Origin: Muribaculaceae bacterium
GTDB taxonomy: Bacteria; Bacteroidota; Bacteroidia; Bacteroidales; Muribaculaceae
Length of the DNA: 51,008 nucleotides
Assembly: GCA_029060285.1 (NCBI GenBank)
Contig: JAIDUH010000123.1
Location: 1 to 51,008, forward strand
Direction of reading: 5' to 3'
Below are positions 37,330-50,690 of the stretch, one piece after another. The notes beneath the pieces were generated by a model. The model made no database searches. It saw only the letters and a program-made list of their open reading frames with translations, and was not told the origin of the DNA. A program made the translations under genes and the position numbers. The number at the start of each line of letters is the position of its first letter. Within the stretch, counting starts at the first letter, position 1.

Positions 37330-37361
37330 TTTGCAGAAAAAAGAAAAAATCGCTAAATTTG
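37330..37361 (+). promoter_or_regulatory. Bacteroidetes-type promoter for the regulator-kinase pair
   Basis: TTTG (37330-37333), a 20-base spacer and TAAATTTG (37354-37361) match the consensus, 26 bases before the start at 37388. An imperfectly spaced inverted repeat (ATTCTAAG at 37270-37277 with CTTAGAAT at 37293-37300) lies 30 bases upstream of the -33 element and could be an operator. Confidence 0.7.
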
Positions 37362-37387: not shown

Positions 37388-37942
37388 ATGACACTAAATT
37401 CTTTGCAGCTCGAAAAACTTTCAGAAAAGATTGGTCAGGACGTCACTACGCCTGCCGGAGCCTCTGTATTGTGTCTTGATTTAGAAAAAAGGGGGATTTT
37501 TATTGGCCTTAATACAGTGAAGCGCCTTGTAGGTGTAATTCCTTCTGATGTCACTCCTCGAAAAACTACCCTTAATATTATAGCTAACTATTTGGGGTAT
37601 CCTAATTGGGATCTTCTTCAAGAGGATACTGCAATGGAGGGTTCAGGTTTTGGAAGAAAAGACATTTTCATTGAGATGTCGGAGCTGGATAAAGATGCTG
37701 TAGTGGAAGTCTGTTGGAAACCGGACCGTAGAATCCTTATCCGCCATGACGGAAACAACCGGTACTCGGTCCTTAAATCGGAGAACAGTAAGCTGCGCCC
37801 GGGCGACCTGCTATCCCTATCTCAGCTTGCCATAGGATTTCCTTTCATCGCCGACAATGTAATCCGCGACCTGAAATCCCTCGGATGCTACCGCGCAGCC
37901 GACGGCGCCGGCATCACCCGTCTTGATGTGTTAGAAGATTGA
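37388..37942 (+). CDS. Bacteroidetes-type putative regulator, unknown family
   Basis: 184 residues, soluble. The N-terminal 75 residues (LSEKIGQD..., GLNTVKRLVGVIPSD, then TLNIIANYLGYPNWDLLQ) resemble a helical, HTH-like module that I recall at the N-termini of many Bacteroidetes proteins; it fits a DNA-binding or protein-binding role. Residues 85-185 look beta-rich and include EVCWKPDRRILIRHDGNNRY and ENSKLRPGDLLSL. No Pfam name comes to mind with certainty. It lies seven bases before the kinase gene and has its own promoter, so the two are almost surely co-expressed; it could be the kinase's substrate or partner (inference). Confidence 0.7.
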   Translation: MTLNSLQLEKLSEKIGQDVTTPAGASVLCLDLEKRGIFIGLNTVKRLVGVIPSDVTPRKTTLNIIANYLGYPNWDLLQEDTAMEGSGFGRKDIFIEMSELDKDAVVEVCWKPDRRILIRHDGNNRYSVLKSENSKLRPGDLLSLSQLAIGFPFIADNVIRDLKSLGCYRAADGAGITRLDVLED

Positions 37943-37949
37943 TAAGGCT

Positions 37950-39197
37950 ATGGAAAGTGGATTTGTCTCAGACCTCAATATGGGCATAGAATCTGGCTGG
38001 CAGCCCATTCCACATCACGGATCAGGACATTTCGAATTCTTTAAAGTAAGACATTTCGGAGCTCTTTTATTTGCGAAACGTCCAGCTGCTGCCTTTCGCA
38101 ACGATCTTGTCACTGTTGAATCCTTAAAGAAAGAGTTCTATATAGGATATAACCTCAACCATCCATCAATTGTAAAATACTTAAAGATGGAGGATGGTGC
38201 TGTGTTTGAGGAATATGTAGATGGTGTGTCTCTACGACAGATGATAGATTTTGGTGATATCCGTCTAAGATCACCACAGTTTTTGGAGCAAATATGTAGA
38301 AGTCTTATCGAGACTGTGTCATATCTCCATAGTCATGGTGTGATCCACAACGATATCAAACCGGAAAATGTGATGATAGCGAGGATTGACAATCAGCTTA
38401 AACTTGTCGATCTTGGGGCAGCTACAAGCGATATGTGGGATGCAACTGGTGGATTTACTCCATCCTACTGCGCTCCTGAGCAAGGAATAACCTCCACAAA
38501 TGTATATACCGACATCTTCCTCATAGGCAAACTGATGGAACAATTGGCTGCTATTGCCGGTGTCAAAAGTCTATGGAGAAAATTTATAAGGAAGGCCACT
38601 TGCAAATATGTTTATGGAAGATTTTATTCAGACAAAGAAGCATTAGAAGCAATACCAAGCTATAAGCGGAGTCAACGTCTTAAGTTAGGTTTGGCAATCA
38701 CGGTTATTGTTGTGGTGAACGTCATTGCATTTATCTTCAGTTATAATTCTACTTATGAAGATAATTATGAAGATAAGAAAATTAATGATCAAGTAGATAA
38801 TATAGTTTCAAAGTCGGACATTTCAATTATTTCAGATCCGATTTCAGAAGCCATTGATAATGGAAAAGCACTTTTTGAGCAGGCTAATGATTCGATATAT
38901 GCGGATATGAATGCGAAAATCAGTAGGTTTACTGCAAATAGGTTTAAAAAACTCATATTCCCAAAATGCCGGATTTTTGCGAAAATGCCTGAAGGACCGG
39001 ATAAAGACAATTTTGGAGCTGACATTGACACCATAATTAATTCTGTGATTAATGAAGTGTTGAAATTTGCTGTAGAGTCAGCTAAGCCATATGAGGAGAA
39101 TGACTATTATTATTATGCACTTTCATGTTTCAAATCTTCCTTAGAAGAGCAATATGATATTGCCGATAGCATTAAATATTCGGCACCTGTACCTTAA
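37950..39197 (+). CDS. Membrane Ser/Thr protein kinase
   Basis: 415 residues. The kinase domain (about 15-235) has the ATP-site Lys43 (FAKRP), an alpha-C Glu62, catalytic loop HNDIKPEN (133-140), DLG (154-156) and the activation-loop end YCAPEQ (173-178), so it should be active; the Gly-rich loop is weak (HHGSGHF). One membrane helix follows at about 245-265, then 150 residues outside the cytoplasm, acidic and helical, with no PASTA repeats. It may sense an envelope signal and phosphorylate cytosolic proteins. The tubulin-like gene 1.7 kb downstream and the regulator just upstream are the obvious candidate partners. Confidence 0.88.
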   Translation: MESGFVSDLNMGIESGWQPIPHHGSGHFEFFKVRHFGALLFAKRPAAAFRNDLVTVESLKKEFYIGYNLNHPSIVKYLKMEDGAVFEEYVDGVSLRQMIDFGDIRLRSPQFLEQICRSLIETVSYLHSHGVIHNDIKPENVMIARIDNQLKLVDLGAATSDMWDATGGFTPSYCAPEQGITSTNVYTDIFLIGKLMEQLAAIAGVKSLWRKFIRKATCKYVYGRFYSDKEALEAIPSYKRSQRLKLGLAITVIVVVNVIAFIFSYNSTYEDNYEDKKINDQVDNIVSKSDISIISDPISEAIDNGKALFEQANDSIYADMNAKISRFTANRFKKLIFPKCRIFAKMPEGPDKDNFGADIDTIINSVINEVLKFAVESAKPYEENDYYYYALSCFKSSLEEQYDIADSIKYSAPVP

Positions 39198-39307: not shown

Positions 39308-39383
39308 TCCCTATTGTCTTGGACACATACGCATCAGGTTTGTCGAAGATGAAAAAAAATTCGTAATATTTCTTTAGATGAAA

Positions 39384-39415
39384 TTTGCATATTTCAACAA
39401 TAAATATTAACTTTG
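39384..39415 (+). promoter_or_regulatory. Bacteroidetes-type promoter for the candidate structured RNA
   Basis: TTTG (39384-39387), a 20-base spacer and TAACTTTG (39408-39415) are a full consensus match. No gene start follows for more than 350 bases, but a hairpin-rich, terminator-ended stretch does. Confidence 0.75.
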
Positions 39416-39421
39416 CGAATC

Positions 39422-39715
39422 TTCTATGCCGGAATCATCCCTGATGATTCCCAAATGGAAGATAGACATATAAGATTGGAAGCGTAATTTGCTTGCATTG
39501 TCGCGATGAATCCTGGAAAAATTCAACCGATTGACAACTGCAACAGAGTGCGCCTCCTCTTGGTAAGTATGGACAGAATTGTATCCCTATGGATAGGGGA
39601 TTTTATATCCGTATGCATCAAGAGCGAGGGTCACATGCTGTTGATGTCAATCAGGTCTTTCCAGGAACCTATCGCGAGTCTACAGCAAATTGTGGCTCGC
39701 GCTCTTCTTTTTTAT
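39422..39715 (+). ncRNA. Candidate structured non-coding RNA, about 290 nt
   Basis: The region begins just after a consensus promoter and ends at a hairpin plus T-tract. A perfect stem GGAATCATC/GATGATTCC lies at 39431-39451, enclosed by a second pairing ATCTTC/GAAGAT (39419-39424 with 39458-39463); the outer arm starts slightly before the nominal 5' end. Further local pairings occur at AAGC...GCTT (about 39481-39495) and CCCTAT...ATAGGG (39585-39598). An open frame starting at 39506 crosses it, but its amino acids look unlike a protein and read through the terminator, so I regard that as chance. I checked for tmRNA, RNase P and SRP core sequences and found none; 6S RNA cannot be excluded. 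Confidence 0.5.
39674..39714 (+). terminator. Terminator of the candidate structured RNA
   Basis: GCGAGTC (39674-39680) pairs with GGCTCGC (39694-39700) with one G-T wobble, followed by TTCTTTTTT. The next gene starts 65 bases downstream. Confidence 0.7.
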
Positions 39716-39778
39716 ATGCCATTGCTAACTTTAACATCAACCCCGCCTCCGAGCCACCGGCAAAATTTTTATTTAAAG

Positions 39779-40336
39779 ATGGCAATATATCAAAGAGTTT
39801 GTGGTCGCTGTGGTTATTCTTCGGGTTTAGAAAATCAGATGTCTTACAATGATGTAGAGTGTCCTATGTGTGGTTTTCAAACTTTTCGTTCTCAAATTAT
39901 CCATGAAAGTGTTGAGGAGAGAGAGATCAGGTTAGCCGAAGAAGAAAAAAGACGCAAGTTTGGGAAGATTTGTGGAGTAGGTATAGCTGCTTTTATTGCT
40001 TTGGTTTTTCCAGGTATTTTGATGTTGATGTTGGTTCATCAGATTACGGAGATTGAATCTGCATTCTGGAATTGTTTTATTGCAATTGCATTAAGTGGAG
40101 CATTACTCCTGGCATTTAGGAGAAACATTATGACATATTTGTTTGTAGATGGTATAGTTATCGTAATCAGTACGATATTGGCTTGGTGTATTAAAAGTTT
40201 TTCTCCTTGGTCATTCGCGTTCGCAGTCCTTGGTAATGGATGGGGATTTGTTTTTGTACCGCTTCTGGGAATTCTCGCTCTTAGTTACATAATTCCGGGT
40301 GGGCTTGCCTACATAAAGAAAGTACAAGAAAGTTGA
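39779..40336 (+). CDS. Zinc-ribbon membrane protein of unknown function
   Basis: 185 residues from ATG 39779. The frame is open for 91 codons upstream, but these cross the terminator and structured-RNA candidate, and 39779 gives an N-terminus like the other zinc-ribbon protein of this locus (both start MAI). Cys8, Cys11, Cys28 and Cys31 form a zinc ribbon, followed by a charged helix (ESVEEREIRLAEEEKRRK) and four membrane helices (about 65-180). A -7-like TAACTTTA lies at 39726. The ribbon is expected in the cytoplasm, where it could bind the tubulin-like protein or nucleic acid. No family name is known to me. Confidence 0.72.
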   Translation: MAIYQRVCGRCGYSSGLENQMSYNDVECPMCGFQTFRSQIIHESVEEREIRLAEEEKRRKFGKICGVGIAAFIALVFPGILMLMLVHQITEIESAFWNCFIAIALSGALLLAFRRNIMTYLFVDGIVIVISTILAWCIKSFSPWSFAFAVLGNGWGFVFVPLLGILALSYIIPGGLAYIKKVQES

Positions 40337-40355
40337 TAGACGTATAATAAGTTTG

Positions 40356-40910
40356 ATGGACGTATTTGACTTCGTTTCTAGCGGATTCTGGAGTGTACTC
40401 GGCGGTTTACTGACTTCGTTGTTGATTGCCGGTGTTCTATTGATGTATTCTACGCAATACACCAAGAGAGGCTCTGTTGAGCCGCTACCATTGGTGTTAT
40501 GCCTCTTGTTGTTTTGCTTGCTTTTTTATCAGACCACTTTGATGTATGGTGCTATCGGGAGCAAGAGTATCGCATTGGATTTCATAAGCGCTTGTCATTT
40601 GCAGTTTGGCGATGAAATAGACGGAGAAGAATTGAAAAGTCAGATGACAACTCTTATTAAAAAGAATCCATTGATATCTTTCTTTATAGACTATGGTGAT
40701 TTGGAAGACTTCGACTGGTCTCAACCAATTAAGTCCCTCCGTATAGTAGTATCTCGTGAATATAATTGGTATATTTTCCGACGTATTGTATGGTCCGTTG
40801 TCTTCACTGGAATTGCTTTCGTTGGAATTATGCTGTCAATGGGCAGATCTCATAGATCACGTAAACGTAAAAGATCTTACAGTTTCGATGATGATATAGA
40901 CTTAGATTAA
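40356..40910 (+). CDS. Membrane protein of unknown function
   Basis: 184 residues from ATG 40356. Two membrane helices near the N-terminus (about 12-33 and 44-65), a soluble segment of about 75 residues with EIDGEELKSQMTTLIKKNP, a third helix (about 145-163) and a basic-then-acidic cytosolic tail (RSHRSRKRKRSYSFDDDIDLD). Nothing recognisable. It lies 19 bases after the zinc-ribbon gene and 17 before the tubulin-like gene, so it is part of the same transcript and probably of the same complex. Confidence 0.75.
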   Translation: MDVFDFVSSGFWSVLGGLLTSLLIAGVLLMYSTQYTKRGSVEPLPLVLCLLLFCLLFYQTTLMYGAIGSKSIALDFISACHLQFGDEIDGEELKSQMTTLIKKNPLISFFIDYGDLEDFDWSQPIKSLRIVVSREYNWYIFRRIVWSVVFTGIAFVGIMLSMGRSHRSRKRKRSYSFDDDIDLD

Positions 40911-40927
40911 CCAATATAAATTTATAC

Positions 40928-43900
40928 ATGGCAACGAACCATCTTATTATTGGACTCGGAGGTACAGGTGGTAAAGTCATCCGTGAGTTCCGTAAAAGAT
41001 ACTTTGAAGATTTCAAGGATCTTAATCCCCACAATGATGTATTTGTGGATTATCTCTATGTGGATTCGTCAGATGACGATCTTAATTCCAAGCATCAATG
41101 GAAAGTACTCGGCAATGATGTCTCCCTTTCTTCAGCTCAGAAGGTTTCTACGCAGGGAATTAGCCTGTCGATGCTACAGGAAATTAATCACTATCCTACA
41201 CTTAATAGCTTTATCAGCCGAGATGATGTCCCGATGATTGAATCCTCGCTCGGAAAACTGATTGATGCTGGAATAGGAGGTCAAAGAAGAAGACTTGGAC
41301 GAATTCTTTTTGCCAATCATGTCAATGGGGAGCGAGGAGTTGTGCAGTCGCTTGAAAATGCTGTAAGAAACCTGACCACTCGCTCAAATACAGCTGATGT
41401 GCATTTTCATATCGTGGCAGGGCTCGCGGGAGGAACAGGATCCGGTTCAATCATTGATATGATAGCTCAGATCCGTAAGCATTATCCTTACAATATAAGT
41501 GGCACTAAATATTCTGTTCACCTTTATCTGTATGTGCCTGAGAATACCATAGCTAATGCTTCCCACAATTCCGGCTTTTATCAAGCCAACGGTTATGCAG
41601 CACTTATGGAGCTTAACGCCATGAGTGTCGGTCAATACCTCCCGGTCGACATTGCCGGTGAGAAAAATATGGATGGCTCGAGTAAGAGAATTGACAGTGA
41701 CAAACCCTTTGAAGTGGCTTATCTTTTCTCGAATACCAACGAGAACGGTTATATTCTTGATCTTGGAACCGGTGTGCCTAAAATGGTGGCTGATTTCCTT
41801 TTTCATAAGACAGTCAGTGCAGGTGCGGATGGTTCTAACACCAAAATGCGTAGGCTTGAAACCAATGAAAATGATGGCGCTGAGCCGGAAGTGGATGCAG
41901 CCGGTCGTCGCAACCGCAGCCGTAGGTTTATGAGCTTTGGAGTCACTCGCGTGATATATCCGGAGACTGAGATTCAGGAGTTCATGACGTTTCGTAATGC
42001 TCAGCAGGGAGCTCGCCAGATGCTCTTCAATTCTTGGGAAGAAGGCATAGGATTTGGAGAGATTACTCGAGAGGCAATCGGCGTCGGCCTTAACGATAAG
42101 ATAAGATCAAAGGAAGGACGTGAGGCAAACAGGATGACTGATGAGTATCTGACACTTTCCAGGCCTATTGTGGAGACTGAGACTTCTAAGCTATGGAAAG
42201 ATATCTCAAAGACTTGGAATGGTCATAAAGAGCGTTTCATACAGAAGATTCTTGATGAAAAAGATCGTGAGGAATGGCTCGGTACCTTCGTACATAAGAT
42301 GGATGAATATTTCGATTCTGGTTTCCGCACTCATGGCGTCAAGCGTTTCTATGAGATTCAGGATAAGGAACGATTCAAGTACGCCAAGGATCTTGTGCGT
42401 GGTGTAGAACGTCAGTTGTTCGATAAATGGGCAAATGGCGATATGAGCGCAATGGAAGCAGAGGAATTTGTCCGTATCCTTGATGAGGATTGTCGCGAAC
42501 GAATTATGACCGATATCCCTAAAAAGAAATCTCAGCTCACAGAGAGGATTAAGAAGATCAAAGGTCAGCTCAGGGAGATACGAGATGAGTGGAATAATAT
42601 CGGATTCTTCGGAAAACTCTTCAAGAGCAAGCCTGAAAATGTATTTAATGATTTTGCATCCGGAGAGACCCAGCTTCATATCGCAAATACAATGCTTGTG
42701 GCCTATGACTATGAACTTGGTATGCTGAGCGCTATTCTTCAAGAACTGGAATCTTTGAAGGCTAATATTAAGGATTGGGAGAGGATGCTCAACGACATAT
42801 ATGAAGAATTCACGCGCGAAGCCGGAAACCGTTGCACAGAAAGATCAGTTATGTCCGATATCAATCTAAAGGAATACAACCGAGATATGGTAGTAGAGAT
42901 GACAGATAGTTTAGTGCGCAACAAGGATAAACAACTTGCAAATGCCGCTGCCATCAGAAACGCTATTCTCAATCTGCTCGGCAACGAAGAAGCACGTTAT
43001 TTCTCTAATATTACCAACCGCCTTGGTGTAGATGCTGTCGTGGATGAGATCTTAAGAATCTGCTCGATTAATGTGGCTCAGGAAGTGGATGAGCTCGCTA
43101 TCGCGAATTCTCGCTACAAGGTGCTGAATGTCAATATACTTGAGAAACTGCATGAGGAGTTGAATACTAATGAAAAGCTGAAGGCTTTTGCTGAGAAGCT
43201 TGTGAAGGCTTCAAAAACTTTCCTTCAGTTCAATTCTCAGGAAGTAAGTAAGTCTACAGGAGGCAAGGTGACAAACACCCGCTCAATGCTTCAGCTGGCT
43301 CTCCCGGAGATGCCAGAAGATCCAAATGGTTTTAGGGAGCGCTTTATCACAGCTTTTGCTGAGGCTTGTCCGGGATTCAACCGTTCTGAAGATGTTTCTG
43401 TCAATCCAAAGGTCAATGAGATAGTGGTGGTAGCTGCAAAGTCGGGTTTCCCTCTTAGGCACATAGACAATGTGAAGACTATAAGGGAGGCTTATCTTAA
43501 GGCAACTTCAGATTCAAAAGAGGGTGAGATGAATAAGTATGTGCTTCACACCGAGACGTTCACTCAGGAACTTCCGTCTCTCTTTGAGATGAGTCAGCAG
43601 GAGATCGGAACGAAGTTCCTTTCTTCAGTGATCTTGGGAAAGGCTCTCGGCATCATTAAGGAAGTGGAGGATCCTGAGACTCAGCGTAAGTATCATGCTT
43701 TGGTGACAACCGATGAATGGGGGTTTGATGTATATACTGAAGCTGGTGGGAAGGATTTTGTTTCTATCCTTGATCATGTAAAGGGAGATTTCGATCTGGC
43801 TCTAAAGATAGATCAAGAGGTAAAAGCTCAGCTTACCGCCAATTATCGCAGCAATGACAGTAAGAAAAAACTCCAGCAGGATATGATTGCGATGCTCAAA

Positions 43901-44005
43901 GAGTTTGTCCTTCCTTCGTATGGTGGCAATCCGATGGCAAGGGGCTTCAAGGAAGCCCAGGATGAATGCCGCAAGATATTTTCCAATGAATTGAAACTAC
44001 TCTAA
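40928..44005 (+). CDS. Tubulin-like GTPase (Tubulin_2 type)
   Basis: 1025 residues, no signal or membrane helix. The nucleotide-binding motifs of the tubulin/FtsZ fold are present: GLGGTGGKVI (9-18), the D-AGIGGQRRRLGR stretch (113-125) that Tubulin_2 proteins share, and the phosphate-binding T4 signature AGLAGGTGSGS (164-174). After the ~380-residue core come about 640 residues, largely helical with charged coiled-coil-like parts (e.g. KKKSQLTERIKKIKGQLREIRDEW around 534-557). FtsZ is about 380 residues long, so this is a much larger protein with an added effector half. Neighbours are zinc-ribbon membrane proteins and exported proteins. I infer a cytoplasmic GTP-dependent polymer or switch recruited to the membrane; no such role is proven. 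Confidence 0.85.
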   Translation: MATNHLIIGLGGTGGKVIREFRKRYFEDFKDLNPHNDVFVDYLYVDSSDDDLNSKHQWKVLGNDVSLSSAQKVSTQGISLSMLQEINHYPTLNSFISRDDVPMIESSLGKLIDAGIGGQRRRLGRILFANHVNGERGVVQSLENAVRNLTTRSNTADVHFHIVAGLAGGTGSGSIIDMIAQIRKHYPYNISGTKYSVHLYLYVPENTIANASHNSGFYQANGYAALMELNAMSVGQYLPVDIAGEKNMDGSSKRIDSDKPFEVAYLFSNTNENGYILDLGTGVPKMVADFLFHKTVSAGADGSNTKMRRLETNENDGAEPEVDAAGRRNRSRRFMSFGVTRVIYPETEIQEFMTFRNAQQGARQMLFNSWEEGIGFGEITREAIGVGLNDKIRSKEGREANRMTDEYLTLSRPIVETETSKLWKDISKTWNGHKERFIQKILDEKDREEWLGTFVHKMDEYFDSGFRTHGVKRFYEIQDKERFKYAKDLVRGVERQLFDKWANGDMSAMEAEEFVRILDEDCRERIMTDIPKKKSQLTERIKKIKGQLREIRDEWNNIGFFGKLFKSKPENVFNDFASGETQLHIANTMLVAYDYELGMLSAILQELESLKANIKDWERMLNDIYEEFTREAGNRCTERSVMSDINLKEYNRDMVVEMTDSLVRNKDKQLANAAAIRNAILNLLGNEEARYFSNITNRLGVDAVVDEILRICSINVAQEVDELAIANSRYKVLNVNILEKLHEELNTNEKLKAFAEKLVKASKTFLQFNSQEVSKSTGGKVTNTRSMLQLALPEMPEDPNGFRERFITAFAEACPGFNRSEDVSVNPKVNEIVVVAAKSGFPLRHIDNVKTIREAYLKATSDSKEGEMNKYVLHTETFTQELPSLFEMSQQEIGTKFLSSVILGKALGIIKEVEDPETQRKYHALVTTDEWGFDVYTEAGGKDFVSILDHVKGDFDLALKIDQEVKAQLTANYRSNDSKKKLQQDMIAMLKEFVLPSYGGNPMARGFKEAQDECRKIFSNELKLL

Positions 44006-44015
44006 TATATTAGTT

Positions 44016-44771
44016 ATGGCTATAAAGAAAGGCAGATGTTCCAACTATGATGGATGCTCTAAGGCTGATAAAGATGAAATTATAGAGGTAGACGAATTTG
44101 ATGATTTCGTGTGTCCGGAGTGTGGTCATCCTCTTGAACCTCTTCAATCTGGGAAAAAGAAGAGCAGCAATAAGATGTTGTTCATCATCGGAGGCTCAGT
44201 TGTTGCTCTTGGGATAATCGGGGCGATAGTATTCGCTTTGATTGGCAGTAAAAGTGAGGAAAAGGAAATTGATCCAATGGTTACAGAAACAGCTCCGGTC
44301 GATTCGGTCGATGTGAAGAAAGAAGAGGCTACCAATCGCAATGACACACTCGTCATTAAAATTGAAGGTCAGGAGAATCTTCCTCAAAAAGAGGATACTG
44401 TTGTCGACTTGTCTGAGGTCGTTACTGAAGAGGTTATTGAAAGTCCGGATGTTGATCCAGCTCCCGTTCCCACTGAAAAACCAGCTGCAAAGACTACTTC
44501 TGCACCTGCAACCCCTAAGTCAACTCAATCCGCTTCTCACAAGCTCAGCTATGGCACATGGACAGGGGGTATGAAAAACGGGAAACCTCATGGCACGGGC
44601 ACCCTCACTTATTCAAAGTCGCAGACCATTGATTCTCGTGATCCTAAAGGCCGTGTGGCTCAGCCAGGAGAGTATATTGTCGGAGAGTGGGATAACGGTC
44701 ACTTGGTGCAAGGCCGTTGGTTTAAAAAGGATGGTAGCAAAGAAGCTGTCATAATAGGTAAAGCCGGTTGA
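44016..44771 (+). CDS. Zinc-ribbon, single-TM, MORN-repeat protein
   Basis: 251 residues in three parts. An N-terminal zinc ribbon has Cys8, Cys14, Cys33 and Cys36 (CPECGHPLEPL). One membrane helix lies at 54-77. A Pro/Thr/Glu-rich linker (80-175) leads to two MORN-type repeats, YGTWTGGMKNGKPHGTGTL (179-197) and YIVGEWDNGHLVQGRW (220-235). By the positive-inside rule (GKKKSSNK before the helix) the ribbon is cytosolic and the MORN part periplasmic, an uncommon side for MORN repeats. It starts ten bases after the tubulin-like gene and shares one base with the next start, so it could bridge the GTPase to periplasmic partners. Confidence 0.82.
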   Translation: MAIKKGRCSNYDGCSKADKDEIIEVDEFDDFVCPECGHPLEPLQSGKKKSSNKMLFIIGGSVVALGIIGAIVFALIGSKSEEKEIDPMVTETAPVDSVDVKKEEATNRNDTLVIKIEGQENLPQKEDTVVDLSEVVTEEVIESPDVDPAPVPTEKPAAKTTSAPATPKSTQSASHKLSYGTWTGGMKNGKPHGTGTLTYSKSQTIDSRDPKGRVAQPGEYIVGEWDNGHLVQGRWFKKDGSKEAVIIGKAG

Positions 44772-45739
44772 TGAAGTTCCCTCACTATTTCAAAGCAATA
44801 AGTCTTATATGTGTCTTCTCCACACCTCTGATGTGGGGAAGACCGCCTGTTGTTCCTGATTATTTTAGGAATTCAGAAGATTTTGAGCTTGCTTCTAAAT
44901 TTTTGGACCATTACCATAAGTTGTTAGAGCATTCCGGTATCGAATCAGTAAGTGACACTATAAGACAGACCAGAGAGAGTGGTCTAAAATATAAGGTAGG
45001 AAATGATTCCCGTTTTAAATCTCTTACAGGAGAAGAGGAGTTTTCTCTGTCTTTCTCCGAAGGATTGTATAGCGCCCAATGGAGGAGAGACGGAAAGCTC
45101 TTGGTAGAGTGCTGTTTCCCTTCAAGAATAGACCTTCTGACGTTTTCTAATAAAGTAGAGCTTGAAGACATGATGCTCTCCAAACTTAAAAACCAGGATA
45201 TAAAAAACGAGATTGGCTCAGTCCCTCAAGAAGACATGTCAAAGCTTAGAAGAATAGATTATTCTCCATTTTATGTGCATGATTTGGGATACTATATCAC
45301 TCCTCGCATGAGCCATCAGGAAGTCTACCAGCCTCTTGATTCCATTTCAAATGTATGTGAGCTACTTGTGAATTCTCCAAAATACCCTTTGGAGTGTATA
45401 TCTAATTATATGTTGACCGGCTATTCTCCTGAACCGATTGCAATCAATCTCAACATGGATAGATATGGCTATCAGACAGAGTCGGTTACGATTGATTTTG
45501 GAAAGTTGTTCAGAATATTGTCTTCTGAAGGAAGTGTCCCATATTGGGGTGTGGAGGAATATGATGGGGATATGGTCAAAGGACTGTATGTATGGTTGAA
45601 TCGCTTCGGTGGTTTTGCACATATCATTACCATAGATATTCCAATGAAAACTCTCGCCGCTTCTTCTAAAGCCAATGCAAGGATGCATAGCTATGTTCGT
45701 CTTGATAACCTAAAATCTCTTTTTGAAGAATTCCAATGA
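44771..45739 (+). CDS. Exported protein of unknown function
   Basis: 322 residues from ATG 44771, whose first base is the last base of the previous stop (TGATG). A signal peptide of about 24 residues ends near TPLMWG. The mature part is soluble with mixed alpha/beta character; no motif or known family is recognised. The TTG at 44768 is an alternative start. Its stop overlaps the next start (ATGA, 45736). Its fixed place between the MORN protein and further exported proteins makes it a likely periplasmic component of the locus. Confidence 0.75.
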   Translation: MKFPHYFKAISLICVFSTPLMWGRPPVVPDYFRNSEDFELASKFLDHYHKLLEHSGIESVSDTIRQTRESGLKYKVGNDSRFKSLTGEEEFSLSFSEGLYSAQWRRDGKLLVECCFPSRIDLLTFSNKVELEDMMLSKLKNQDIKNEIGSVPQEDMSKLRRIDYSPFYVHDLGYYITPRMSHQEVYQPLDSISNVCELLVNSPKYPLECISNYMLTGYSPEPIAINLNMDRYGYQTESVTIDFGKLFRILSSEGSVPYWGVEEYDGDMVKGLYVWLNRFGGFAHIITIDIPMKTLAASSKANARMHSYVRLDNLKSLFEEFQ

Positions 45740-46479
45740 AAACAAGATTCATAATAATCTGCATACTTTTGTCTATGTGTTGTAGCTTACGGGCGGATGT
45801 CAACACAGACCGTACGATGAGCAAAATCAGCCGGGATATTCACAACTACTTATCGGCTGATAGCCGTGCCTCTACTGAGCAGGAAGCTTATGATAAGGCT
45901 CTTGAATTATTGACGGAGAAGATAACTTCTTATATACAAGAAACTAAAAAGGAGTCTCCTGATGCAGTATTCGTGCCTGAAGTGGCAAGCATGTATCAGC
46001 GGTTTGATTCGCGGATTTCTGATAATCGCTACCGTGTGTTTCTGTATGTCAAGAAATCGGACTTAATGTCTCTGGATAATTCGTCAAATGCCATGGTGAT
46101 CGCTAAAACAGAGGCTGACTCATACGAAATCATTCCTACGTATTCACAGCCTCCGGTAGTCGTAACAGATACAGTGACGATAGTCGAAAGGGTGGAAATT
46201 CCAATGAACCCAATTATTTCAAATATAATTAATAACACTGATTATAATTCCTTGCAGGAGGCGTTGATAAAGATGCGCAAGGAAGGAAAAGTGTCAGGAG
46301 CCGCTGCATTTCCGATATCAAGTCTTGACGATTTTTATATAGCAATTGTCAGAGGAACATCCGTTACGGATTATATTCATGTAAAAGATGGCATGTGGAA
46401 AGACGTCATGACCGGTAAGGACGTTGATCCGTCAAATTATTCTTCATCATCGGCTTATTGGTTTACAATTCCTAAATAA
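45736..46479 (+). CDS. Exported protein of unknown function
   Basis: 247 residues. The signal peptide MKTRFIIICILLSMCCSLRA is followed by a helical region with QEAYDKALELLTEKITSYIQ (residues 55-74) and RYRVFLYVKKSDL (98-110), a pattern similar to LPP20/FlgT-like domains in which a conserved helix precedes a strand. From about 155 a second part resembles a small alpha/beta domain (SLQEALIKMRKEGKVSGAAA). The likeness is general and no family is claimed. It overlaps the preceding gene by four bases, indicating coupling. Confidence 0.72.
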   Translation: MKTRFIIICILLSMCCSLRADVNTDRTMSKISRDIHNYLSADSRASTEQEAYDKALELLTEKITSYIQETKKESPDAVFVPEVASMYQRFDSRISDNRYRVFLYVKKSDLMSLDNSSNAMVIAKTEADSYEIIPTYSQPPVVVTDTVTIVERVEIPMNPIISNIINNTDYNSLQEALIKMRKEGKVSGAAAFPISSLDDFYIAIVRGTSVTDYIHVKDGMWKDVMTGKDVDPSNYSSSSAYWFTIPK

Positions 46480-46488
46480 TAGATTCAT

Positions 46489-47466
46489 ATGAACTTTCGA
46501 AAACAAACATTTTTAACATTAATTCTGCTTTGTTTCTTCTCGGTTCGGGCACAGGTAGATGTAGAGATAATCGATGGCGCTGATAGCTCACAGCTCAAAA
46601 CTGCCATTGAGACTAATGCTTCAAAGTTTCTTTCCGAGGTATTTGATGCTTATTCTGACGACCGTGCTTTACGTCTCAATAATATCGTGGCTGATGATGG
46701 GCAGATGTCTATTGAGATGCTCTGGGAAAATGTTCATTTTCGTCCGGAAGATCAGTATATAGGGGAAATTCTTCTTAATACCGGAGCTGGCTACCAGATT
46801 AGAAATATTCCGTTGCAGATCCTTCCTCAGGATGTCGGGGCTGAAACTGACTATAAGGAGGCTGTCATAAACTTTGATCGTTCTGGCAAGATAATGTCGG
46901 TATATTTTTCCATAGAAGAAAATACCTATAAGCAGATTATGGAAAAGGGTATCCAGCTTAAGGATATGGAGCGCCGTCTTGAGATCCTTGATTATGTTGA
47001 GCGGTTTCGAACTTCCTACAATCAGAAGGATATCCAGTTTCTGAATCAAGTATTTTCCGATGATGCACTCATTATTACGGGAAAGGTCATAACACCAAGC
47101 AAAAAGGCTGATGGTCTCTCAGTATCTCTACCGCAAGTGAAATATACAAAGCAGAATAAGGAGCAGTATCTCACTAATCTTAAGAGAATTTTCAACAACG
47201 TCAGATATATAAATGTGGAGTTTGAGGATGTTCAGATTAAGAGACATGGAATTAACCCAAACATATATGGAGTTCGTGTTGTCCAGAATTGGAATGCTTC
47301 AAACTATAGCGACGAAGGATATGTATTCATGGTGTGGGACTTCACGAATCCTGATAAGCCACAGATCCACGTCCGAACATGGCAGCCGATGTATCTTGAC
47401 AAGGGCAAAACCCAGCCTCTGCCGGAAGAAGAGATATTCGATCTTAACTCAATTGAAGGAATATAG
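46489..47466 (+). CDS. Exported protein with NTF2/SnoaL-like C-terminal part
   Basis: 325 residues with a signal peptide ending about VRAQ. Residues 20-150 are unrecognised. Around 160-300, ILDYVERFRTSYNQKDIQFL then NQVFSDDALIITG has the helix-then-strand start of NTF2/SnoaL-like cone-shaped domains, followed by strands (YINVEFEDVQIKRHG, VRVVQNWNAS). In this fold the cavity often binds a ligand or a protein partner. It lies nine bases after the previous gene; the domain call is by eye. Confidence 0.7.
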   Translation: MNFRKQTFLTLILLCFFSVRAQVDVEIIDGADSSQLKTAIETNASKFLSEVFDAYSDDRALRLNNIVADDGQMSIEMLWENVHFRPEDQYIGEILLNTGAGYQIRNIPLQILPQDVGAETDYKEAVINFDRSGKIMSVYFSIEENTYKQIMEKGIQLKDMERRLEILDYVERFRTSYNQKDIQFLNQVFSDDALIITGKVITPSKKADGLSVSLPQVKYTKQNKEQYLTNLKRIFNNVRYINVEFEDVQIKRHGINPNIYGVRVVQNWNASNYSDEGYVFMVWDFTNPDKPQIHVRTWQPMYLDKGKTQPLPEEEIFDLNSIEGI

Positions 47467-47513
47467 AGTCAAAATTAAAGAGGAATAATAGCAAATTTAA
47501 CATAGTGAGAATT

Positions 47514-48833
47514 ATGCTCTATATAAAAATTTTATTATCATTAATATTTTTATTCTGTTGTCAAGTATATGCTCAAGAAATAATCGTTTCAAAAGTAGAA
47601 TGCCTTGATTCCGATATTTCAGCTCGGACAAATCCACTTTTTGATATCAATGGGGATCCTTGTGCTTTGGTAAAGATTAATCTTGTAGTGCCAGATGTTG
47701 AGTTTGAGGGGAATATTATTAAAAAAATACCGAAAAAGGGGCAGTATTGGGTATATATGGTTGGTGGTTCACGGGCATTGACTATTAATCACTCTCTATT
47801 ACTGCCTTGTAAGATAGATTTCAAGGACTATGGAATTAGTAAATTAAAAGAAAAGGTTACTTATTCAGTTACTTTGAAAGTTCCATCGGAGTTATATTCC
47901 TCATTGTTGGCAAGTAAAAATATAGAAGAGCCTGTAAAATATGACAGTGAAAAAGAAGATCTTTTGGCTGATAGTATTAAGGTCCTTATGGATGAGCTTA
48001 AATATGATGAAGCTTTTATATTAGCACAAAGAGGAGAGGCGGAAGGGAGTGTTGTCTCAACTCATCTTCTGGCTGTAATGTATTATAATGGGTATGGAAC
48101 AGAAAAGTCAGAGAGCCTTGGTCATAAGTATTGTGCTATTTCTGCCGAAAATGGTTATCCGGCTTCTCAACGTATTTATGGCTTAGATTTTATCAATGCC
48201 AGGGGATGTCTAGAAGATGAAGAAGAAGGTGTCCGCTGGTTAGAATTAGCAGCTCAGAATAATGATGCTGATGCTCAAGCTTGTCTTGGAGAAATTTATT
48301 CAGAAGGCTGGGGGCGTATTGATCCGGATTTGACGAAATCATTTAAATGGACTCGTAATTCAGCTGAACAAGGAAATGTATATTCTCAAGAGCAAATGGC
48401 GTTTAAATATGTTGAAGGTATTGGGGTGCACAAAGATAATCGAAAAGCTAATGAATGGTTCAGGAGAGCCATTGATAATGGAAGTATCACGGCATGCGCA
48501 AATCTTGGAATCAGTTATCGCGAGGGAGAAGGTGTTCCTGTAGATTATAAAGAAGCAGAAAGATTATTTCTCCGGGGTGTGGAATTAGGAGATGCTTATG
48601 CTGCTTGTCTGTTAGGCCATCTTTATACATGGTGTTTAAGAGATGAAAAAGAATCTTTAAAAAAAGCATTGGTTTGGTATGAGAAGGCAAGTGATATGGG
48701 CTCCGAAAAAGCTACCGAATTCTTATTAGATGAATATTCAGGTAATTCTGTGCTTGGGGTATCAAAAAATAGTGATAAAGCTGCCTTTTATAGAAATAGA
48801 TTAAATAAGTTAAGAGAGACATCGAATGATTAG
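47514..48833 (+). CDS. Exported Sel1-repeat protein with an N-terminal beta module
   Basis: 439 residues from ATG 47514 (a GTG at 47505 adds MRI). After a signal peptide ending near VYAQ, residues about 25-130 form a beta module shared with the next two genes: DINGDPCALVKI, EFEGNI, an aromatic strand, GGSRALTI and DYGISKL. Residues about 165-430 carry about six or seven Sel1 repeats, e.g. HLLAVMYYNGYGTEKSESLG and ANLGISYREGEGVPVDYKEA. Sel1 repeats mediate protein assembly, here in the periplasm. It is clearly more AT-rich than the genes before 47466, with a 47-base gap before it. Confidence 0.82.
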   Translation: MLYIKILLSLIFLFCCQVYAQEIIVSKVECLDSDISARTNPLFDINGDPCALVKINLVVPDVEFEGNIIKKIPKKGQYWVYMVGGSRALTINHSLLLPCKIDFKDYGISKLKEKVTYSVTLKVPSELYSSLLASKNIEEPVKYDSEKEDLLADSIKVLMDELKYDEAFILAQRGEAEGSVVSTHLLAVMYYNGYGTEKSESLGHKYCAISAENGYPASQRIYGLDFINARGCLEDEEEGVRWLELAAQNNDADAQACLGEIYSEGWGRIDPDLTKSFKWTRNSAEQGNVYSQEQMAFKYVEGIGVHKDNRKANEWFRRAIDNGSITACANLGISYREGEGVPVDYKEAERLFLRGVELGDAYAACLLGHLYTWCLRDEKESLKKALVWYEKASDMGSEKATEFLLDEYSGNSVLGVSKNSDKAAFYRNRLNKLRETSND

Positions 48834-48884
48834 ACTAAATAAGACAATGATGTTTCATATTTTTTAATACGATTTTTGAGCTAT

Positions 48885-49769
48885 ATGAAATATAATTATA
48901 TTAGAAATCTATTTGTTTTGGTAGTCTCTCTTTTTTCAATAGCTTGTTCTGCTAAGAATAAAGATAAAGTTGTGATCGATACTATATCTTTTAAGGAACT
49001 GACAGATATCTCGGCAAGAGTACACTCAGAATACGATAGCGAAGGAAATCCTTGTGCATTAATAAAAGTCTATTCTCCTCTTATAGAAAATTTAAGATTT
49101 CAAGGAGATGCTGTTGTAAAAGAAACGAAAGTTGACAATGAAAAATGGATTTGGGTAAGGGATCGTAGTTCAAAATTAACCCTTTTAGCAAAGAATATGG
49201 AGCCAAGGACAATTGTTCTGTCTGATTATGGGTATCCAAGGCTTCATGCTAAGACTACTTATCAACTGAACATTACGGTAGGACATGAAAGAGAGACTAC
49301 TGTGTATAAAGATATTGATATACATAAAATTGAAAGAAAAAACAAATATGTGGATTCTTATAAATATGATAAAGACAAAGTTTATTGGTTCTTGATGTAT
49401 CAATGTCAATCAGGTTCGGCTTTGGGATTTAATATTGGAGTTTGTGTGGATTTTGGATTTTATCTTTCTTATAACCATTATGATGGTGGTTTTTTTGATT
49501 TTCTTCCCGATGCTAATGAACCATGTGATATGTCTACGTTTATGGGAGGCACGATGTTTAGGTTAACTCCGTATCTATACTTGCAAACAGGATTGGGATT
49601 TTCTTATGAGCCTCTTGTTGGTATGCATTTCGTTACAGGAGCAAATCTTCTGTTCAGGATTAAACGATTTATAGTTGGTTGTGGATATAACTATAATCAT
49701 ATGTCAGTTTCTTATAATAGAAATGTATTTTTTGATGGGATTACAGCACAATTAGGATTAAATTTTTGA
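48885..49769 (+). CDS. Outer-membrane beta-barrel protein with shared N-terminal module
   Basis: 294 residues from ATG 48885. The signal ends either in a lipobox (SIAC, Cys22) or shortly after it. Residues about 40-140 are the same module as in the Sel1 protein (EGNPCALIKVYSP, LRFQGDAVV, LTLLAKNM, LSDYGYPRL). The C-terminal 120 residues have alternating hydrophobic strands (LGFNIGVCVDFGFYLSYNHY, LYLQTGLGFSYEPL, FIVGCGYNYNHMSVSYNRNV) and end with a Phe, the mark of a small outer-membrane barrel. Close relative of the next gene; role unknown. Confidence 0.75.
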   Translation: MKYNYIRNLFVLVVSLFSIACSAKNKDKVVIDTISFKELTDISARVHSEYDSEGNPCALIKVYSPLIENLRFQGDAVVKETKVDNEKWIWVRDRSSKLTLLAKNMEPRTIVLSDYGYPRLHAKTTYQLNITVGHERETTVYKDIDIHKIERKNKYVDSYKYDKDKVYWFLMYQCQSGSALGFNIGVCVDFGFYLSYNHYDGGFFDFLPDANEPCDMSTFMGGTMFRLTPYLYLQTGLGFSYEPLVGMHFVTGANLLFRIKRFIVGCGYNYNHMSVSYNRNVFFDGITAQLGLNF

Positions 49770-49787
49770 CATATCTATGGTTTCCTT

Positions 49788-50690
49788 ATGAAAAATTCTC
49801 ATAATATTAACTTGCAGCTTTATATCATAATAATGTTAGTAATGATGATGCCAATAACATTATATGCGAAAAAGGACTATCAAGATACAGAAACAGTTAT
49901 TTCTTCTATTTCCTTTTCTGAACTGGATGATTCTACCGCATTAGTTAAGCCTATATTGGATTTAAACAATGATGGATGTGCGTTAATTTTAGTCAATTGT
50001 TTAGATTCAGAAGAATTGAAATTTGAAGGGAATGTTTTTAAGCAGGAAAAAGAAGATAATATTTTGCGTTTATGGATATTAGCTGGTTCAAAACATATAA
50101 TAGTTTCCGCACAAAATATGCATCCAAAGACAATTACGTTCGCTGACTATGGATATCCAATCTTGCATGAGTTTACAACATATGGGTTAGAATTAAAAAT
50201 TGATAAGGAATCAGTCGATTTGAGATATAGGGATGTTGAAGTTGTGAAAGAAAGATACCATACGGTAACGGATTATCATTATAATTACATGGAAATTAAA
50301 ACTAAATATTTTCTTTCTTATCAATTTCAATATGCCTTTCCATTAGGACTTAACCTTGGCTTTTGTAAAAAATATGGGGCATACGTATTTTTAAATTATA
50401 TTGGGACTTCTACTGATTGGTATAAAACAGAAGAACGATATGGTGATTGGGATGTTACTTTTTGGTCTATAGGAGGTGGTCTAATGAGTAGATTGGGTCA
50501 GAAGTGGTATCTTCAAGTAGGGGCTGGTGTTACAATGGAAGATAGGGAAGAAAAATTTTTTACTGCTGGCGCTTGTTTGATATTCAAGAGTAAGATTTCT
50601 TTTGGTATAGGATATTATTATAGTGGTGCCTCAGCACATTATAAAAGAAATGTACTACTGGACGGTTTGACACTACAATTAGGATTTTAG
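49788..50690 (+). CDS. Outer-membrane beta-barrel protein, paralogue of the previous gene
   Basis: 300 residues with a signal peptide ending near TLYAK. The shared module follows (NDGCALILVNC, LKFEGNVFKQ, LWILAGSKHIIVSAQNM, FADYGYPIL), then a barrel part of some 120 residues (KYFLSYQFQYAFPLGLNLGF, WYLQVGAGVTM, KISFGIGYYYSGASAHYKRN) ending in LQLGF. The two barrel proteins are aligned over their whole length and probably arose by duplication. Eighteen bases separate them. The AT-rich composition continues. Confidence 0.75.
   Translation: MKNSHNINLQLYIIIMLVMMMPITLYAKKDYQDTETVISSISFSELDDSTALVKPILDLNNDGCALILVNCLDSEELKFEGNVFKQEKEDNILRLWILAGSKHIIVSAQNMHPKTITFADYGYPILHEFTTYGLELKIDKESVDLRYRDVEVVKERYHTVTDYHYNYMEIKTKYFLSYQFQYAFPLGLNLGFCKKYGAYVFLNYIGTSTDWYKTEERYGDWDVTFWSIGGGLMSRLGQKWYLQVGAGVTMEDREEKFFTAGACLIFKSKISFGIGYYYSGASAHYKRNVLLDGLTLQLGF

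What the first reader, a model, noticed from the sequence alone, without database searches (positions are those of the whole stretch)
39779..50690. Unrecognised envelope system built around a tubulin-like GTPase
Nine or ten closely spaced genes combine a 1025-residue Tubulin_2 protein with two membrane proteins that have cytosolic zinc ribbons, one of them carrying periplasmic MORN repeats, three coupled exported proteins, a periplasmic Sel1 scaffold and two outer-membrane barrels. The order follows the path from cytoplasm to outer membrane. I know of no described machine with this set. Possible roles are a secretion or surface-assembly apparatus, an envelope-stress response, or a defence device.
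Basis: partly seen in the sequence, partly recalled or inferred. Interest (0 to 1): 0.82.

Follow-up and report, generated by a model that had tools for sequence, protein, structure and literature searches.

The report
Envelope receptor with tubulin-like GTPase head
A gut-bacterium operon joins a tubulin-like GTPase to a set of envelope proteins, and related operons join the same envelope set to a protein kinase or a TIR domain instead, which suggests a modular signalling device rather than a fixed machine.

Summary
The conserved core is six genes, window 40353-47466: TM1, Tub2 (PF13809), a zinc-ribbon/TM/MORN-like protein (ZrMORN) and three exported proteins (Exp1-3). It recurs, whole or in part, in 22 further distinct loci of the window's family and four other families of its order. 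The Zr1, Sel1 and barrel genes around it diverge or are replaced in close relatives. An upstream kinase pair (37388-39197) probably belongs to it.

The new point: the periplasmic MORN-like domain plus Exp genes also occurs without a tubulin. There the same membrane protein carries a Ser/Thr kinase (8 loci, one weak) or a TIR domain (2 loci, one borderline) instead of the zinc ribbon. Natural chimeras break inside ZrMORN: MORN tracks Exp3 (rho 0.76), not Tub2 (0.08).

Most likely it is an outside-in envelope receptor with exchangeable cytoplasmic heads, one an FtsZl1-type GTPase (confidence 0.5). Function is untested. Tubulin_2 membrane systems were predicted in 2010 and tubulin conflict systems in 2020; the vWA, DO-GTPase2 and GAP1-N2 parts tested here are absent. 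New variant of a known kind.

The parts
37388..37942 (+). HTHlike: 184-aa protein, possibly DNA-binding (by eye only); probable regulatory partner
   Evidence: No Pfam, PADLOC or NCBIfam hit; 85-88% identical in both close relatives; a homologue stands next to a kinase in L105, L109 and L110, loci that also hold an Exp3-like protein; promoter-like TTTG-N-TANNTTTG at 37330-37361
37950..39197 (+). PK: receptor-like Ser/Thr kinase, one TM (residues 246-264), about 150 aa beyond it
   Evidence: PF00069 7.7e-20; TM; kinase part kept, tail diverged in L082 and nearly absent in L083
39384..39415 (+). Bacteroidota-type promoter-like site before the main operon
   Evidence: 8 matches in the window on both strands, 1.45 expected by shuffling; consensus match only, motif recalled
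39779..40336 (+). Zr1: two CxxC motifs then 4-5 hydrophobic segments; fast-diverging accessory
   Evidence: PF09723 0.027, under cut-off; segments; 29-34% identical among the three closest loci; detected by profile in those relatives only
40353..40910 (+). TM1: about 3 TM, core gene
   Evidence: Hydropathy; homologue directly before Tub2 in 20 of 22 further type II loci
40928..44005 (+). Tub2: Tubulin_2/FtsZl1 GTPase domain (6-360) and long C-terminal part; core gene
   Evidence: PF13809 1.6e-51; invariant GGTGSG loop; on one side of a branch with the other type II Tub2, SH-aLRT 100, quick tree; that the C-terminal part is helical rests on the unusable-confidence model
44016..44771 (+). ZrMORN: zinc ribbon - TM - linker - MORN-like domain (residues 174-251); the joint between cytoplasm and periplasm; core gene
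44768..45739 (+). Exp1: exported protein of unknown fold; core gene
   Evidence: Alignment A4; no Pfam hit, no PDB profile hit
45736..46479 (+). Exp2: exported protein, perhaps distantly LPP20-like; core gene
   Evidence: Alignment A5; LPP20 hits lie in two homologues and are under the Pfam cut-off there; profile link
46489..47466 (+). Exp3: exported protein with perhaps an NTF2-like C-terminal domain; core gene, best conserved of the three
   Evidence: SnoaL_3/DUF4440 hits under cut-off; alignment A6
47505..48833 (+). Sel1: exported; N-terminal domain shared with the two barrel candidates, then Sel1 repeats; variable accessory
   Evidence: PF08238 1.4e-32; shared N-terminal domain E 5e-16; no nucleotide match in L082/L083
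48876..49769 (+). OM1: shared N-terminal domain plus predicted small barrel; variable accessory
   Evidence: 36% identical to OM2; barrel inferred from sequence
49788..50690 (+). OM2: as OM1

Best explanation
A modular transmembrane signalling system. Outer proteins with a shared N-terminal adaptor domain and a variable end (Sel1 or barrel here; PEGA with WG, or FGE/C-type-lectin, elsewhere) meet a fixed periplasmic set Exp1-Exp2-Exp3. That set engages the MORN-like periplasmic domain of a one-TM protein. The cytoplasmic end of that protein is exchangeable: a receptor kinase, a TIR domain, or, here, a zinc ribbon that works with a tubulin-like GTPase (Tub2) and its membrane partner TM1. The most likely flow is outside-in: a change at the outer envelope is passed through Exp1-3 and MORN to the zinc ribbon and alters GTP-dependent assembly of Tub2 at the inner membrane. 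The upstream receptor kinase/HTH-like pair regulates expression or activity. Shown by sequence: gene order, domain content, head exchange, chimeras inside ZrMORN, replacement of the outer genes. Inferred: physical contacts, direction of signalling, GTP hydrolysis, polymerisation, and what is sensed.
For: Six-gene core in distant loci. The MORN-like domain is also found behind a kinase (8 loci, of which L098 weak at iE 0.0097) or a TIR domain (2 loci), with an Exp gene next. In 117 order genomes, 5 of 5 strong MORN-profile matches sit beside Exp3; four of the five are rows of the profile. MORN similarity tracks Exp3 (rho 0.76) not Tub2 (0.08), difference 0.67, jackknife s.e. 0.17. The Exp3 clade of the window (100/99) is rejected by Tub2 data (p-AU 1.4e-71; group named). 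The 7.1-kb core is 93-95% identical as DNA in two relatives and no match runs past Exp3 into the downstream genes; those two relatives share a different downstream set, 97-99% identical between them. Terminal genes in L074 and L138 carry FGE/C-lectin domains.
Against: ZnR tracking Tub2 better than Exp3 (0.52 v 0.31) is within error (difference 0.21, s.e. 0.27), and so is TM1 (0.08, s.e. 0.26). No contact is modelled: the AlphaFold job on Tub2 gave pLDDT 34.5. The direction could be inside-out. Several loci hold Exp3 with no MORN or tubulin profile match next to it (L085-L091, L113, L130-L132), though kinases were not scanned there systematically. 13 of the 22 further loci show the whole six-gene run unbroken; the other 9 are cut, rearranged or lack a gene. 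Only two TIR cases, one just under the Pfam cut-off. The upstream kinase pair was detected beside the nearest relatives' loci only.
Confidence: 0.5

Rival explanations
1. Inside-out machine: Tub2 polymerises under the inner membrane and, through ZrMORN and Exp1-3, moves or assembles something in the outer envelope (membrane remodelling as proposed for FtsZl1, or surface assembly).
For: FtsZl1 systems were predicted to remodel membranes; envelope-wide set with inferred outer-membrane proteins; an Exp3-like protein with a weak LPP20 match beside a giant BspA-type protein in the own genome; Exp1-3 directly before a protein with a Por_Secre_tail domain in L084.
Against: Kinase and TIR heads on the same envelope module are signalling or effector domains, not force producers. 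No ATPase, transporter or secretion family was found in the core by Pfam.
Confidence: 0.25
2. Anti-phage or other conflict device: the outer variable proteins sense an attacker and Tub2, kinase or TIR is the effector (a special case of the best explanation).
For: TIR and kinase as alternative heads, replacement of outer genes between close relatives, FGE/C-lectin ends of a kind proposed as antigen sensors (passages of PMC10907252), patchy distribution (16 of 101 genus genomes with PF13809 over cut-off; this counts other Tub2 types too).
Against: 10 of the 12 window proteins were scanned with PADLOC: only generic kinase matches and one weak match of the ZrMORN TM/linker region (kinase loci). 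No toxin, nuclease or pore family found in the window copy. One weak match in viral contigs (30% over 115 residues).
Confidence: 0.25
3. Housekeeping envelope-stress regulator, no conflict role.
For: Chromosomal setting near cydAB in the window and in L082; kinase and HTH-like partner.
Against: Sparse: type II seen in 4 other genomes of the 295 order genomes, 7 of the 9 other over-cut-off Tub2 genomes having been opened; head and tail exchange between loci is unusual for housekeeping.
Confidence: 0.15
4. Chance gene cluster with unrelated genes.
For: The outer genes do vary.
Against: The core recurs in 22 further distinct loci down to about 23-25% Tub2 identity.
Confidence: 0.02

Closest known systems
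FtsZl1 (PF13809) membrane-remodelling systems, Makarova and Koonin 2010 (PMC2875224; parts 1-3 of 5 and passages read)
   Same: Same GTPase family and similar size with a long C-terminal part, kinase nearby, membrane partners; B. caccae is in their set.
   Different: No vWA, P-loop GTPase or OmpA family among the 20 window genes scanned. The envelope module and the swappable membrane protein are not in the text I read; Additional files 5 and 6 could not be opened.
GTPase-centric (DO-GTPase/GAP1-N2) conflict systems, Kaur et al. 2020 (PMC7159879; sections 27 and 29 read, plus passages)
   Same: Tubulin, zinc ribbons, TM parts, kinase themes, NTF2 and PEGA domains beyond the membrane, GYF and FGE domains as accessories.
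   Different: DO-GTPase2 and GAP1-N2 not found in the window's own genome (81% complete); no vWA in the neighbourhood; their tubulin theme is said to be restricted to firmicutes and actinobacteria.
Myxococcus Agl/Glt gliding complex, GltJ/MglA (passages of PMC3169522; zinc-ribbon and GYF roles of GltJ recalled, from no call)
   Same: Idea of a cytosolic GTPase docking on a zinc-ribbon end of an envelope-spanning protein; 4 of 12 Tub2 match GYF_2, by eye at the C-terminus.
   Different: Only a weak TM/linker match to GltJ (22 bits against a cut-off of 450); no AglRQS-type motor family in the core. Analogy, not kinship.
Receptor-like Ser/Thr kinases with MORN-like ends beside Exp1-3 (found here)
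   Same: Same periplasmic end and the same Exp genes.
   Different: Cytoplasmic kinase instead of zinc ribbon plus tubulin; all eight are in the window's family.

Membership tests
Tubulin_2 / FtsZl1 protein family | Match to PF13809 over cut-off with glycine-rich GTP loop | tested here: met
   176.1 bits against cut-off 27; invariant GGTGSG
Tubulin_2 / FtsZl1 protein family | Tubulin/FtsZ fold | tested here: inconclusive
   PF00091 matches 9 of 12 aligned members at E 0.01 or better, the window under cut-off; AlphaFold model pLDDT 34.5, not usable; PDB profile reaches tubulin only at E 0.21
FtsZl1 membrane system of Makarova and Koonin | vWA-domain gene in the neighbourhood (majority of their operons) | tested here: not met
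   None among the 20 window genes scanned; present in the type I and type III loci scanned (L047, L081)
FtsZl1 membrane system of Makarova and Koonin | Ser/Thr kinase nearby | tested here: met
   37950-39197, PF00069; detected by profile beside the nearest relatives' loci only
DO-GTPase/GAP1-N2 conflict system | DO-GTPase of the TRAFAC clade | tested here: not met
   PF19993 (DO-GTPase2) not found in the own genome (81% complete), a control genome rings; DO-GTPase1 not searched
DO-GTPase/GAP1-N2 conflict system | GAP1-N2 protein | tested here: not met
   PF20013 not found, a control genome rings
Known anti-phage defence systems | Match of core proteins to a PADLOC family | tested here: not met
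   Six core proteins scanned: none matches, save one weak match of ZrMORN over its TM/linker region; the upstream kinase matches generic kinase models
Known anti-phage defence systems | Protection against phage | not testable with these tools
   Needs bench work

The most novel reading that the evidence does not exclude
A previously undescribed class of bacterial envelope receptor: a fixed periplasmic core (Exp1-3 and a MORN-like domain) reads variable outer proteins and drives one of several plug-in cytoplasmic heads, Ser/Thr kinase, TIR, or a tubulin-like GTPase whose assembly is switched by an extracellular cue. To my knowledge it would be the first cytoskeletal-type GTPase known to act as the output of a transmembrane receptor in bacteria.
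Probability: 0.35. Interest if true: 0.88.

Novelty: new variant of a known kind. Interest (0 to 1): 0.73.

Why it matters
FtsZl1/Tubulin_2 proteins were given only a predicted role in 2010, and I found no tested one in the searches made here. Here one is tied, by domain swapping and natural chimeras, to a membrane protein whose sister versions carry a kinase or a TIR domain. That gives a concrete prediction (zinc ribbon talks to the tubulin, MORN talks to Exp1-3) that can be tested with a few constructs, and hints that a tubulin relative can be the output end of a bacterial receptor.

Tried and rejected
Ten-gene machine as one fixed unit: rejected, because the flanking genes change between close relatives. 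vWA/FtsZl1 type: rejected for this locus; it fits other Tub2 loci (type I vWA-Tub2-papain in L047; type III vWA-Tub2-transglutaminase in L081). DO-GTPase/GAP1 system: not met. Known defence system: no model fits. Phage-borne: one weak match in viral contigs, not followed. PDB profile searches for Tub2, Exp1, Exp2, Exp3 gave nothing usable. AlphaFold of Tub2 with three near-identical sequences gave pLDDT 34.5, so no fold search was run; the Exp1 job was never accepted. Weak MORN-profile matches (21-27 bits, 6 of 11): two were opened and are ordinary multi-MORN proteins; four were not opened. Literature searches. I saw listings and starts of abstracts (capped lists) and opened six papers; none of what I saw describes this arrangement, but the library lacks most subscription journals and supplements could not be opened.

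Rows dropped: the similarity matrix used the window and 16 of the 22 further type II loci; left out were close copies (L042, L044, L054, L076) and contig-cut L066, L128. L051, L057 and L071 have no Exp3 and L127 no TM1, so those comparisons rest on fewer loci. The Exp3 tree counted L114 and L115 as tubulin loci although no Tub2 lies on the stretch held, and L052, L078 are long branches. The Tub2 tree used 46 rows, not every Tub2 locus held, by a quick method with many long branches. The clade tested was chosen, on 14 rows. L099 has a kinase a few frames before Exp3 but is not counted as a MORN kinase, because only its TM/linker matches. Of 9 other order genomes with Tub2 over cut-off, G731 and G746 were not opened. 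My ORF caller picks the longest non-overlapping frames, takes frames to contig ends, and can miss small genes (for example Exp1 in L076).
Full report
What is there. The window lies in contig 28 of a 3.29-Mb metagenome-assembled genome (81% complete). A scan of genome contigs with Tub2 gave two loci, a Muribaculaceae and an 'uncultured Porphyromonadaceae' MAG (L082, L083; Tub2 97% and 99% identical). After cydAB come an HTH-like gene and a receptor-like kinase (37388-39197), a 581-bp gap, then ten genes on the same strand to 50690. A Bacteroidota-type promoter-like motif lies before the HTH-like gene (37330) and in the gap (39384); the window has 8 such matches where shuffling gives 1.45 (the motif itself is recalled). 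The 1025-aa protein is a Tubulin_2/FtsZl1 GTPase by profile with an invariant GTP loop in 12 of 12 aligned sequences.

What is conserved. PF13809 matches 27 of 101 genus genomes (16 over cut-off), 43 of 247 family genomes (35 over), 14 of 295 order genomes (10 over) and 10 of 345 phylum genomes (7 over). I fetched many of the neighbourhoods and labelled them with profiles built from the window genes. Thirteen of these show TM1-Tub2-ZrMORN-Exp1-Exp2-Exp3 unbroken. Four are cut by a contig end: L051, L066, L071, L128 (L128 also has no TM1). Five are rearranged or miss a gene: L050, L057, L073, L076, L127. Eighteen are in the window's family and four in four other families of its order: L125, L126, L127, L128. 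Five other phylum genomes with a strong Tub2 were opened (L100-L104); none is type II. Type II Tub2 lie on one side of a branch, SH-aLRT 100, 21 rows (quick tree). The other main types are vWA-Tub2-papain peptidase and vWA-Tub2-large protein-transglutaminase (domains scanned in L047 and L081).

What is not conserved. Against L082 and L083 the window shows a 7.1-kb block of 93% and 95% DNA identity from the first codons of TM1 to the stop of Exp3. Past it on the right there is no nucleotide match: Sel1, OM1 and OM2 are replaced or diverged, while L082 and L083 share a different set of four proteins at 97-99%. On the left Zr1 is 29-34% identical among all three, although a 437-bp leader before it is 91% identical in L082. 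The kinase domain is kept but its far tail diverges (L082) or is nearly absent (L083). Sel1, OM1 and OM2 share an N-terminal domain, and profiles of these genes match the start of genes after Exp3 in several other loci. Such genes end in FGE/C-type-lectin in L074 and L138 and hold PEGA and WG repeats in L082.

The head swap. A profile of Exp3 finds full-length relatives in genomes without a Tub2 match. In eight family loci (L092-L098, L116) the gene before Exp1 is a receptor-like Ser/Thr kinase whose C-terminus matches the MORN-like domain of ZrMORN; L098 is weak on the MORN part alone (iE 0.0097) though 1e-12 over TM, linker and MORN together. The kinase is by Pfam in L092, L093, L094, L096, L098 and by PADLOC kinase models in L095, L097, L116. 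In L134 and L138, from other families of the order, the same end is joined to a TIR domain (TIR_2 3.5e-14, and 4.6e-6, the latter 27.6 bits against a cut-off of 28). Of 34 distinct MORN-like proteins in the loci held, 21 have Tub2 beside them, 2 lie at contig ends and align over the zinc-ribbon part, 8 have a kinase, 2 TIR, and 1 (L120) no cytoplasmic head; 32 of 34 have an Exp gene as the next called gene. These loci were fetched for Tub2 or Exp3, so that count is biased. As a check, the MORN profile alone was run over 117 order genomes: five strong matches (56 bits or more), all beside Exp3 (three with Tub2, two with TIR), and six weak ones of 21-27 bits, two of which I opened and found to be plain multi-MORN proteins. 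Four of the five strong matches are rows of the profile itself, so the test speaks to strong matches elsewhere (none), not to discovery.

Chimeras. Pairwise similarity over 17 type II loci (14 with Exp3) shows that MORN follows Exp3 (rho 0.76) and not Tub2 (0.08); the difference of 0.67 has a jackknife error of 0.17. ZnR follows Tub2 (0.52) more than Exp3 (0.31), but that difference (0.21, error 0.27) is not significant; nor are those for TM1 (0.08, error 0.26), Exp1 (0.39, error 0.32) and Exp2 (0.16, error 0.27). Single cases are plain: window and L073 share MORN 0.90 and Exp3 0.71 but ZnR 0.18 and Tub2 0.14; L050 and L078 share Tub2 0.59 and ZnR 0.52 but MORN 0.02. The Exp3 tree puts the window, L042, L043, L044, L060, L073 and L050 in one clade (100/99); Tub2 data reject that grouping (lnL 444.5 lower, p-AU 1.4e-71; the group was named). 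Tubulin loci as one Exp3 clade are also rejected (p-AU 6e-11; long branches are in play). Heads and tails have been exchanged, and in these cases the joint is inside the membrane protein.

How it most likely works. The membrane protein is the coupling rod; its periplasmic end belongs to Exp1-3 and its cytoplasmic end to the head. Kinase and TIR heads are typical outputs, so information most likely runs inwards, from variable outer proteins through Exp1-3 to the head. In this operon the output would be GTP-dependent assembly of Tub2 near the membrane, held by TM1 and gated by the zinc ribbon. Four of 12 Tub2 match GYF_2 (at the C-terminus by eye), a further hint of docking. The upstream kinase and HTH-like genes have homologues in L105, L109 and L110, loci that hold an Exp3-like protein and an adaptor-domain protein, so they probably belong to the wider system. 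Contacts, direction, GTP hydrolysis and the cue are inferred.

Against this reading. Some Exp3 loci have no MORN or tubulin match beside them (L085-L091, L113, L130-L132); kinases were not scanned there systematically. TIR cases are two. ZnR-Tub2 tracking is not significant. The AlphaFold model failed. An Exp3-like protein with a weak LPP20 match beside a giant BspA-type protein (L106) could mean a surface-assembly role for the Exp proteins. Exp2's LPP20 likeness rests on two homologues, both under the Pfam cut-off.

Known systems. The nearest are FtsZl1 systems (PMC2875224) and DO-GTPase/GAP1-N2 conflict systems (PMC7159879). The vWA, DO-GTPase2 and GAP1-N2 features were tested and not met, so it is not filed as a member of either system, though Tub2 is a member of the PF13809 family. 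Other papers were seen as passages only: PMC9871819, PMC3169522, PMC5898192, PMC10907252. The supplements of the 2010 paper, which may list the Bacteroides caccae neighbourhood, could not be read, so part of this gene set may already be tabulated there.

Noticed in passing
L045-L048, L055, L056, L058, L059, L061, L063-L065, L072, L077: A second, three-gene Tubulin_2 arrangement judged by gene sizes: about 570-640 aa - Tub2 about 925 aa - about 1070-1117 aa; domains scanned in L047 only, where they are vWA and a papain-family peptidase, and an HSP70-TPR gene follows.
   Followed up: partly
L067, L080, L081: A third arrangement: vWA - Tub2 about 1083 aa - about 1000 aa of unknown domain - transglutaminase-like protein (domains scanned in L081 only).
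   Followed up: partly
L122, L123 (G070, G114) and other weak PF13809 hits: A roughly 560-aa protein weakly like Tubulin_2, encoded beside a roughly 1350-aa protein in the two loci opened.
   Followed up: no
L106 (G000:C147), L107, L108: In the window's own genome, 627-643-aa proteins with an Exp3-like C-terminus (weak, under-cut-off LPP20 match at the N-terminus of the one in L106) beside large proteins; the one in L106 is a BspA-LRR/Big_2 protein of at least 2902 aa.
   Followed up: partly
L105 (G000:C2), L109, L110: Loci with an Exp3-like protein, an adaptor-domain protein and the HTH-like/kinase pair homologous to window 37388-39197; in L105, the one scanned, with fimbrillin-like, BspA/M64 and LRR proteins.
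   Followed up: partly
window 39335-39770: Leader DNA before Zr1 is about 90% identical in both relatives although Zr1 itself is only about 34% identical; the Zr1 frame is open from 39506. Could hold regulation or mark a recombination edge.
   Followed up: no
L084 10962-19901: Exp1-Exp2-Exp3 followed by a protein of at least 2980 aa with FG-GAP, laminin-G and Por_Secre_tail domains.
   Followed up: no
L085 2492-13380: Exp2-Exp3 with a PEGA-domain protein two genes before Exp2, a penicillin-binding protein two genes before that, and 6-phosphogluconate dehydrogenase downstream; L088 looks alike by gene sizes but was not scanned.
   Followed up: no
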